DNA from: Xiphophorus maculatus
Lineage: Eukaryota; Chordata; Actinopteri; Cyprinodontiformes; Poeciliidae
Reading direction: 5' to 3'
Length of the DNA stretch: 64,000 bases
NCBI RefSeq assembly: GCF_002775205.1
Contig: NC_036461.1
Location: 10,763,015 to 10,827,014, forward strand
Shown here: in pieces, positions 1,641-4,515 of the stretch
How the letters are laid out: each line of letters begins with the position of its first letter
Numbering within the stretch: the first letter of the stretch is position 1
Position numbers and translations under genes: made by a program
Notes under the pieces: generated by a model
Told to the model about the DNA's origin: nothing
Seen by the model: only the letters and a program-made list of their open reading frames with translations
Databases searched by the model: none

Positions 1641-2401
1641 TCTCTCAGCAGTTTAAGTAAGGTGACTGGCCTTTTGATTTACATTTTGTGTTGATACACA
1701 CATTTTGAATGAAAGCACATTCTTCTCTGGGATGCAGAGCTTGTTTCCCATAATAGCAGGACATTCCAAGCCTATTTCAAATATTGACATGACTTTCTTT
1801 TAAACTTCTGACATAATAATTATGCACAAACTATTATGATTATACATGTGAATATGCAGCAATTGCTGCATTTTCAATATGATTTTCTTCCCTCGGGTGG
1901 CTCAGCCAGGGGGTACCACTGGGAAAAATGTTATTACTCAGCTCATAATTATGTTACCATTGCTTCTTTGCATGTCCTCTATTAAAGGCACAGTGTAACA
2001 AAAAGTTGGCCTTACATTTTGGGCGGGTCAACAGAGGCTTTTGTTTCGAGCAAAAAGGTTTATCACCCAGAGCAACATTGCGACTGGGAGAGCAGCAAGT
2101 GCTCAAAAGCAAAACAGGTTTTCTGTCAGTTACATTCTGAACATGTTTCCCATGGCTCTTTGCATGTTTTGTTAATGTGAAGTGGATCCCTGCCTATGTT
2201 GAACACAGTGTGTATTGTACAAAAAAATATGAATGGAGATCACCAATCAAGTTAATTAAATAACTTAATATTTAATTACTTCTCTTTGGGAATATATAAA
2301 GAGCTATTTACTCTACATTGCATTTGATTACGCTGAGTGTGAAATTTAAAATGGTGAAAACAACAGGTTTTCCAATGACACTGAAAATAGATTCTCCAAA
2401 A

Positions 2402-2909
2402 CAGTGGTTCTCAAACTTTTTTCAGTGATGTACCCCCTTAAAAATATATTTTTAGTCAAGTACCCCCTGACACAGGCAAAACATTTTTGGAATAAAAAAG
2501 AGGTACAGTGCTGTAAAATCACTGTCTGATTTATTAAAGCCAAACAACTTATATCAGTGAACCTGACAAATACATCCATATTGCAAACATTGCATGGTTA
2601 AACAAAAAAGAAAAACAGAAGACGGTGACCACCAGGAAGGTATAAAACCAGTCAAAACTGAAATATGCAAAACGCTGCTAATTTATATTGGTCTCTGTAA
2701 TGGTACAAAATTAAATATATACATAAATAATAATTCAGTGCATGAACACACATTTATATTTTATCGAACTTTTTACAAACTAATTTTTCCCAAGACTTAT
2801 TATGAGGAGCCTACTGATTTTTTAAAGATATTTTGAAAAGCTTCACGTACCCCCTGCAGTACCTCCACGTACCCCCAGGGGTACGCGTACCCCCATTTGA
2901 GAACCACTG
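2402..2909. mobile_element. hAT (Charlie-type) non-autonomous element
   Basis: The ends form matching terminal inverted repeats: CAGTGGTTCTCAAACTT at 2402 and the reverse complement of the same motif ending at 2909. Direct repeats of GTACCCCC lie just inside both ends. The flanking octamers CTCCAAAA and CTCTAGAA agree at six of eight bases, which fits a decayed 8-bp hAT target-site duplication. The 508-bp element contains only short open frames and no recognisable transposase. The terminal motif is the same type as that of the mammalian Charlie/MER5 group. Confidence 0.8.
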
Positions 2910-3339
2910 CTCTAGAACACAGTTTGAAGAAATTCACAAACTGACTTCCGTTATTCAGTTTGTGAAAATCAAATCTTTTTGGAATGTTTCATTTTAAAGG
3001 GCACCATTCACCTTCAATCTGGGTAATCACTCATCTGCAATTAATGATGAAAAAAAAATCATATTATGAAGTAGCTAATGACACAAACCGTCATCGTTTT
3101 GCAGGCGTGTCTCTTTTTACAATAGTTTAGGTTGTTTGGATTGGACAAATCTAAAAACAAAGCAAATATAAGGACCTGCCCAGCCCTCGGGTGTTAGGGA
3201 AAAGGGTCTAAATTGTGCATTTGGGCTGTCACTAAACCTGGCAAAAGACTGCCTGCTTTTTCCAGCTGCACTCAAATCTTCCCTGTTCTGTAACTATCTA
3301 AGAGACGTATTTGGGCATAAGAGGGCAGGACTCCAAAAA

Positions 3340-3428
3340 CACACCCACTTTTATCAGCTCAAAAACCACCACATAAATATAGCTGCAAAACTGACTTTAG
3401 GCACATATTCATTTCATCTTGAGCTCAG
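3340..3428 (+). promoter_or_regulatory. TATA promoter and untranslated exon 1 of the small His/Gly-rich gene
   Basis: A CACCC box (3342-3346), a GATA-factor site read on the minus strand as TGATAA (3351-3356) and a TATA-like ATAAATA (3373-3379) lie in order over 40 bp. Initiation would fall near 3400-3408. An untranslated exon would then end at the donor CAG/GTATGT, after 3428. CACCC plus GATA is typical of blood-cell promoters, but tissue specificity here is only an inference. Confidence 0.55.
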
Positions 3429-3581
3429 GTATGTACGGGGTGATTATTAGACTTTGACTACAAGGAGTTTGAATGTTTCCATTTTTGCAGTCATCTTTTC
3501 TCTTCTGCTGAGTTTCTTGATTACTTTGTCTTGGTTTTTAATAGGAAAACACTTGTGTTCTACTTTCATCATCAAGCCAAA

Positions 3582-4406
3582 ATGAGCGATAGTAAGTCTC
3601 TTTGATTGTGAAATATTAATGAGATAATTAATTATGAAATTAATTACCGATTTTTAGATAATAAAAAAAGAAAGAAAAATGCTATCTTGAAGGAAAGTTA
3701 GCTAATCCTCACAGTCCTCCTTTCCTTTTTTTTGTTTTTACCCATATGAAGCAAGAGATCAAAGATGCGTAATGCGATGCCTCAAGCAGTAATTTCTATG
3801 CCGTTTGTATTGTAGGATGATGTGCTGAGTTTTAATTTTAATTCTTGTTAAAATACTAATTTATCACCTTTTTTTGCCTTCAATCTATTACCACATCAGA
3901 ACAACCAAAAAAGCCAGAACAGGTAAGTTAGTTTTACTTTCATCAGTCATTATAAGCAAAATGTGTGTTTGTATGTATTTATTTACTTATTTATTTTTGT
4001 CATCGGCACATAAGAAGGAGGGATCAGGACCCGGATGTGAAGGAGTAAGATTACTTCTCCAGATCGTTGCTAAATTTTTATGAAGTTTTATTTAATTGAA
4101 CAATAATAATGTTGTTGTTGTGTGTGTGTGTGTGTGTGCGTGTGTGTGTTGTGTCTTTCACAGGAGGATGGAAAGGTACAACCTTAACTTCTTGGAATTT
4201 AAGTGACACCAGTTTTAATTTTTGTTCTATTTGTAAAATTGTTGCATTTTTATGGCTGCTTAAAGGGGAAAGGGAAAAGCCAAGAAAAGGGGAAAGGTCA
4301 CGGACATGGTCATGGAGAAGGACAAGGTCATGGACATGGAGGAGAAGGACACGGTCATGGACATGGAGGAAAAGGAGGCGGTCCAGGTGGAAAAGGCGGC
4401 AAGTGA
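3582..4406 (+). CDS. Small lysine/glycine/histidine-rich protein, unrecognised (71 aa)
   Basis: I do not recognise this gene. Exons: untranslated about 3403-3428, then 3545-3591 (ATG at 3582), 3900-3922, 4015-4044, 4164-4175 and 4266-4406. Every junction is GT-AG and the frame stays open, giving MSDKQPKKPEQ, then KEGSGPGCEG, then EDGK from a 12-nt microexon, then a 46-residue last exon of GKGKSQEKGKG followed by GHGHGHG-type repeats. There are eight His alternating with Gly, a strong positive charge, one Cys (residue 19), no signal peptide and no membrane segment. His-Gly repeats bind transition metals or nucleic acids in other proteins; such a role is inference only. Exons 3 to 5 are symmetric or very short, so alternative splicing is plausible. 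The promoter and poly(A) signals around it support a real transcription unit. Confidence 0.7.
4121..4149. repeat. (GT)n microsatellite
   Basis: Dinucleotide TG run with a few interruptions, located in the intron just upstream of the 12-nt microexon of the small His/Gly-rich gene. It lies about 15 bases from the acceptor at 4162-4163 and could influence microexon recognition. Confidence 0.9.
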
Positions 4407-4429
4407 AAGAGACCACTGAGGAGACCCTA

Positions 4430-4515
4430 AATAAAATGATGAAAAGCCATTATTTTGTCAAAAAGATTAATGTATGATTGTATTGCATTCCTCATTAAAT
4501 AATCTACAAAATAAA
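4430..4515 (+). other. Poly(A) signals of the small His/Gly-rich gene
   Basis: AATAAA occurs at 4430-4435, only 24 bases after the stop codon, and again at 4510-4515. Either would give a very short 3' UTR, in keeping with a compact, highly expressed gene. Confidence 0.6.

What the first reader, a model, noticed from the sequence alone, without database searches (positions are those of the whole stretch)
3403..4515. Unrecognised compact gene for a Lys/Gly/His-rich 71-residue protein
Six exons, five consensus junctions and a continuous frame encode a short basic N-terminus followed by eight alternating Gly-His units. One coding exon is only 12 nt (Glu-Asp-Gly-Lys). I recall no vertebrate family with this layout. 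A cytosolic or nuclear metal- or nucleic-acid-binding peptide is possible, but that is inference. Genes this short are usually missed by automatic annotation.
Basis: partly seen in the sequence, partly recalled or inferred. Interest (0 to 1): 0.78.

Follow-up and report, generated by a model that had tools for sequence, protein, structure and literature searches.

The report
Small Gly/His-rich fish protein gene
A stretch of fish DNA beside the MTHFD1 gene probably encodes a tiny, shapeless protein rich in glycine, lysine and histidine that may hold metal ions, but neither RNA nor other fishes could be checked.

Summary
The six exons, continuous frame, 12-nt exon, 71 residues and eight Gly-His units exist as described. 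'Five consensus junctions' is too strong: all obey GT-AG, but the exon-4 acceptor scores -3.6 bits, below all 15 MTHFD1 acceptors I placed in the window, and the exon-6 acceptor is weak. Junctions plus frame are not beyond chance: 83 of 162 other 1113-base stretches hold an equally good four-intron chain. T is 19/216 in coding exons, 254/609 in introns. This test singles out the frame only partly. Upstream lie a TATA-like box and a GATA/CACACCC pair found once in 64 kb. No paralogue, Pfam, PDB or Rfam relative was found. I judge a real small gene 65-70% likely; its disordered product probably binds Zn/Cu through HGH arrays that suit METTL9. Function is inferred; expression and conservation are untested.

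The parts
3263..3379 (+). Promoter-like stretch: MRE-like 3267, GATA-type sites 3294 and 3351, CACACCC 3340, TATA-like ATAAATA 3373
   Evidence: Motif strings (21 tried) and expected numbers; function inferred; the GATA/CACACCC pair was noticed by eye before it was counted.
3403..3428 (+).
3545..3591 (+). Exon 2, 5' UTR and first 10 coding bases (ATG at 3582)
3900..3922 (+). Exon 3, 23 nt coding, strong donor
4015..4044 (+). Exon 4, 30 nt coding; doubtful acceptor; skipping keeps the frame (61 aa)
4164..4175 (+). Exon 5, 12 nt coding (EDGK), strong acceptor
4266..4406 (+). Exon 6 coding part, Gly/Lys/His-rich; TGA 4404-4406
4296..4383 (+). 27-nt (nine-codon) tandem repeat, 3.1 copies, coding the Gly-His blocks
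4407..4515 (+). 3' UTR with AATAAA 4430 and 4510, ATTAAA 4494

Best explanation
It is a real, compact protein-coding gene on the + strand, with no second copy of exon 6 found in the genome, ending about 2.7 kb from the coding end of MTHFD1, which faces it on the other strand. Shown: the sequence features and the exon agreement beyond chance. Inferred: the product moves freely in cytosol and nucleus; its three Gly-His blocks bind Zn(II)/Cu(II) loosely and reversibly; its five HGH motifs can be methylated by METTL9, which lowers that affinity; and the TATA plus GATA/CACCC upstream region gives tissue-restricted expression, erythroid or gut at a guess. My odds: real gene in this frame 0.65-0.7; metal buffering as its main role, given a real gene, about 0.45. 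The confidence below is for the statement as a whole, with its mechanism held loosely.
For: 0 of 1086 overlapping stretches of the same genome give a chain with none. The form without exon 4 passes too: at 15 residues or more, 0 of 400 shuffles and 5 of 1086 stretches have a chain, none with as good a splice score. T is 19/216 in coding exons and 254/609 in introns. In exon 6 the 12 T before the stop codon all fall on third positions, and GC3 is 0.24 against 0.30 GC in intron sequence. In 15 Gly-X units 18 of 27 adjacent changes fall on third positions (p 4e-4 if independent, which they are not). TATA-like box, GATA/CACACCC pair and poly(A) hexamers are suitably placed. No hydrophobic 11-residue window (highest KD -1.08), disordered by charge-hydropathy, five HGH motifs. 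A DREV (METTL9) family gene is in the genome. METTL9's HxH rule and the loss of zinc binding on methylation: PMC13027442, abstract and passages.
Against: Splice signals plus frame are ordinary: 83 of 162 stretches do as well, and without the composition limit 40 of 400 shuffles reach the model's mean per site. Acceptors of exons 4 and 6 are weak. Codon usage prefers frame b; frame b also has a chain with 2 such residues and a slightly higher splice sum, 36.4 against 35.9, and at 15 residues frames b and c have chains with none (38.1 and 20.8). The hydrophobic-free criterion was chosen after seeing the protein. Allowing 2 such residues, 47 of 1086 stretches have a chain, 6 of them as good per site (4, which looked at one chain per stretch); allowing 4, 189 and 35. 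No RNA, proteome or orthologue was available. Metal binding and METTL9 action were not tested.
Confidence: 0.5

Rival explanations
1. A spliced non-coding or poorly translated RNA, or a young transcript whose last exon happens to hold a purine-rich minisatellite; the open frame has no function.
Against: Exons 2-5 match exon 6 in composition in 0 of 400 shuffles and 0 of 1086 stretches; the first ATG of the mRNA opens this frame; third positions carry most of the variation.
Confidence: 0.2
2. No gene: AT-rich intergenic DNA with a purine-rich low-complexity patch onto which a model was fitted.
For: 83 of 162 other stretches support as good a four-intron chain; weak acceptors.
Against: Exon agreement and T contrast; TATA-like and GATA/CACACCC sites upstream and poly(A) hexamers downstream.
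Confidence: 0.15
3. A real gene read in frame b of exon 6 (a Lys/Glu/Met-rich, helix-like tail ending after 4419), with another first exon.
For: Preferred by codon usage; open through exons 3-6 and reachable from an ATG at 3431 with a splice sum of 36.4.
Against: No ATG in exon 2 in that frame (sequence); third positions would be 83% GC against 58% in MTHFD1; repeat variation would fall on second positions; 0 Pfam families. Its own-genome search did not complete.
Confidence: 0.08
4. A real gene whose product acts on chromatin, like the HMGN1-type micropeptides of zebrafish.
For: Small and charged; short fish HMGN1 proteins were first taken for lincRNAs (PMC10188112, abstract and passages).
Against: 0 Pfam families up to E 10; no Arg in the protein; residues 1-25 are not basic.
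Confidence: 0.05

Closest known systems
Shepherin I (Capsella Gly/His-rich peptide)
   Same: Glycine- and histidine-rich peptide; complexes with Zn(II) and Cu(II) described (PMC10698721, abstract).
   Different: A plant antimicrobial peptide. Here there is no signal-peptide-like stretch, the first half is Lys/Glu-rich, and the gene has six exons.
METTL9 substrates with HxH tracts (SLC39A7, S100A9, NDUFB3)
   Same: Tracts of alternating His with a small residue between them (PMC13027442, abstract and passages); here five HGH motifs.
   Different: Those tracts are parts of larger proteins; here Gly-His blocks make up much of the product. Methylation untested.
HMGN1 and zebrafish linc-mipep/linc-wrb micropeptides
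   Same: Short charged fish proteins (87 and 93 aa) first taken for lincRNAs (PMC10188112, abstract and passages).
   Different: No HMGN match in Pfam; Gly/His-rich and without Arg.
Hpn and hisactophilin (recalled)
   Same: Cytosolic His-rich proteins: a nickel store and a pH-sensing actin binder (recalled).
   Different: No sequence comparison made; other taxa; hisactophilin is folded (recalled).
Metallothionein (recalled)
   Same: Small cytosolic metal-binding protein; one MRE-like site lies upstream here.
   Different: One Cys in 71 residues.

Membership tests
METTL9 substrate (HxH tract protein) | HxH with a small uncharged middle residue in disordered sequence | tested here: met
   Five HGH motifs, disordered by charge-hydropathy; rule from PMC13027442, which says the motif is required but not always sufficient.
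METTL9 substrate (HxH tract protein) | 1-methylhistidine in the protein | not testable with these tools
   Needs mass spectrometry; a DREV (METTL9) family gene is in the genome.
Gly/His-rich secreted antimicrobial peptide (shepherin type) | Secretion signal (recalled as a feature) | tested here: not met
   Highest 11-residue hydropathy -1.08; 0 of 71 residues A/I/L/V/F/W/Y.
HMGN | HMGN profile or Arg-rich nucleosome-binding core (core recalled) | tested here: not met
   0 Pfam families up to E 10; no Arg.
Metallothionein | About one third Cys in clusters (recalled) | tested here: not met
   1 Cys of 71.
Protein-coding gene | Spliced transcript | not testable with these tools
   No RNA data held.
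Protein-coding gene | Frame conserved in relatives | not testable with these tools
   No other fish genome is offered by the tools; in the own genome only this copy of exon 6 was found.
Protein-coding gene | Exons agree with each other beyond chance | tested here: met
   0 of 400 shuffles, 0 of 1086 stretches; criterion set after seeing the protein, and only partly specific to the frame.
Protein-coding gene | Codon usage favours the proposed frame | tested here: not met
   A gene finder trained on 1349 codons of the window prefers frame b.

The most novel reading that the evidence does not exclude
A fish gene, perhaps restricted to its lineage, whose product is little more than a disordered HGH array: a dedicated cytosolic zinc/copper buffer switched by METTL9 methylation, expressed in blood or gut cells, and possibly born when a purine-rich minisatellite was captured as the last exon of a young transcript.
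Probability: 0.12. Interest if true: 0.75.

Novelty: new member of a known kind. Interest (0 to 1): 0.4.

Why it matters
If expressed, it adds a small, easily overlooked gene with coding micro-exons of 12, 23 and 30 nt to a fish genome, and a protein rich in METTL9-type motifs that would be a clean test bed for histidine methylation and zinc. If not, it shows how easily a six-exon model can be drawn: about half of other stretches of equal length match it on splice score and open frame.

Tried and rejected
Hyperosmotic glycine-rich protein of salmon, a recalled name: searched; passages of two of the five papers listed gave no sequence and no link; dropped.

Strings GHGHGHG and GHGHG in papers: 6 and 27 papers; by their titles none is about a fish protein of this kind. 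Other listings gave no candidate: 20 of 25 papers listed; 1 paper; 20 of 593 listed. They cover open-licence PMC text only, so they do not show that the gene is unpublished.

Second MTHFD1 locus: the only strong second FTHFS place is on C15. Its FTHFS exons are 58-92% identical and its N-terminal part 33-38%, which I read as MTHFD1L (inference), so no ohnologous copy is expected there. The ORF comparison of the window with 60 kb of C15 showed no match from 3403-4515, but with the low-complexity filter on.

Frame c of exon 6 gave a Pfam BRF1 hit, E 0.0036, 18 bits, below the cut-off of 25: taken as chance. NCBIfam gave one hit at E 2.6: chance.

Repeated element: in the own-genome DNA search the 60 matches other than the locus itself lie in query 556-600 or 694-758, that is, in introns 3 and 4. 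Rfam: 0 matches at gathering score in the window.

Splice matrices and motif strings are recalled, not from a call. Structure prediction was not run: a disordered low-complexity chain would give a meaningless model.

Full report
What is there. The window is C19:10763015-10827014 of a genome of 704,300,149 bases in 101 contigs, which by size and contig count I take for the platyfish (recall). The coding parts of exons 2-6 are 10, 23, 30, 12 and 141 nt; the introns are 116, 308, 92, 119 and 90 bp.

Neighbours. MTHFD1 lies on the - strand from about 7.2 kb: FTHFS, THF_DHG_CYH and THF_DHG_CYH_C match. Further on are BTB/BACK and kelch matches on the - strand, a TOG-domain match, a CCDC28 match and a Tmp39 match. 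In the 10 kb to the left a - strand coiled-coil gene looks like CCDC9 (by eye; no Pfam hit). The candidate and MTHFD1 are convergent.

Splice sites. With recalled vertebrate matrices the donors score 9.7, 5.6, 12.7, 4.6 and 3.0 bits and the acceptors 2.9, 3.0, -3.6, 10.5 and 0.1. As a yardstick I picked by hand, from sites shared with the C15 paralogue, 15 MTHFD1 acceptors (-2.95 to 12.0) and 14 donors (2.9 to 11.8) (phases not checked). The candidate's donors fit. Its exon-4 acceptor is below all 15, its exon-6 acceptor below 14 of 15. Exon 4 is 30 nt, so an mRNA without it keeps the frame (61 aa), and that form has the better splice score: +4.8 against -4.1 bits after a charge of 10 per intron.

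A gene finder with codon usage from 1349 codons of the window prefers another frame of exon 6, and 16 of 170 segments, this one among them, reach the region's best score. Junctions and a continuous frame are therefore no evidence by themselves.

Exon 6 encodes only Gly and hydrophilic residues. If exons 2-5 were drawn by chance they need not match it. None of 400 dinucleotide shuffles has one, even with 2 such residues allowed. None of 1086 overlapping real stretches has one; with 2 allowed 47 have a chain, 6 of them as good per splice site; with 4 allowed, 189 and 35. Without any such limit 40 of 400 shuffles reach the model's mean per site. For the form without exon 4 (at least 15 residues), 0 of 400 shuffles and 5 of 1086 stretches have a chain, none as good per site. 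The limits of the test: the criterion was set after seeing the protein, and it is only partly specific to the frame. At 20 residues frames b and c give no chain with none, but frame b gives one with 2 at 36.4 bits; at 15 residues frames b and c give chains with none at 38.1 and 20.8 bits. What it shows is that T-poor exons lie between T-rich introns (19 of 216 against 254 of 609) at usable splice sites, which chance does not readily give.

Which frame. The repeat is open in all three + frames. In frame a the 12 T before the stop codon all sit on third positions, and third positions are 24% GC, near the 30% of intron sequence; in frame b third positions would be 83% GC, against 58% in MTHFD1. 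Among 15 Gly-X units 18 of 27 adjacent changes fall on frame-a third positions (p 4e-4 if independent; repeat duplication makes them not independent). The array is a 27-nt, nine-codon repeat of 3.1 copies; its copies also differ in amino acid (codons). Frame b has no ATG in exon 2. I favour frame a, against the codon-usage result.

Promoter and ends. CACACCC at 3340 and a GATA-type site at 3351 form the only such pair within 20 bp in the window; a second GATA-type site is at 3294 and one MRE-like site at 3267. I tried 21 motif strings, so some hits are expected. GATA plus CACCC before a TATA box is common in erythroid and some gut genes (recalled; one review came up in a listing, not read). 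Poly(A) hexamers are at 4430, 4494 and 4510.

Relatives. By protein, only this exon 6 in the own genome, 5 candidates scored; by DNA, no other match outside introns 3 and 4. Pfam none, NCBIfam one chance hit, PDB two weak hits to ribosomal protein S10 at E 0.1 and 0.27, Rfam none in the window. The tools offer no other fish genome, so orthology, dN/dS and age are open; 'lineage-restricted' is speculation. Further own-genome searches did not complete.

How it most likely works. Shown: no hydrophobic stretch, disorder by charge-hydropathy, eight His with five HGH motifs. Inferred: a freely diffusing peptide whose neighbouring imidazoles bind Zn(II) or Cu(II) loosely; Zn(II) and Cu(II) complexes of the Gly/His-rich shepherin I are described (PMC10698721, abstract). 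METTL9 methylates the second His of HxH with a small middle residue, and this diminishes zinc binding in known cases (PMC13027442, abstract and passages); a gene of that family is present. A methylation-tunable metal buffer is my best guess. Chromatin binding like that of the HMGN1-type micropeptides (PMC10188112, abstract and passages) is less likely, since HMGN features were tested and not met.

Verdict. A probable small gene (0.65-0.7) with a guessed function.

Noticed in passing
window 2395-2916: An element of about 500 bp with 21-nt inverted end arms (86% complementary), about 490 bp upstream of exon 1; by eye a non-autonomous hAT-type transposon.
   Followed up: partly
window 4119-4154: A TG microsatellite in intron 4, ending about 10 bp before the acceptor of the 12-nt exon; its length could affect inclusion of that exon (inference).
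   Followed up: no
window 4267-4419, + strand, frame b: The alternative frame of exon 6 reads as a Lys/Glu/Met-rich tail and is preferred by codon usage; its own-genome search did not complete.
   Followed up: partly
window 4268-4474, + strand, frame c: A Pfam BRF1 match below its cut-off (E 0.0036), probably chance.
   Followed up: no
L010 8899-10000: Another stretch bounded by 'agtgtttctcaaac' and 'gtttgagaaagact' ends at the left edge of the window (by eye); possibly a related inverted-repeat element.
   Followed up: no
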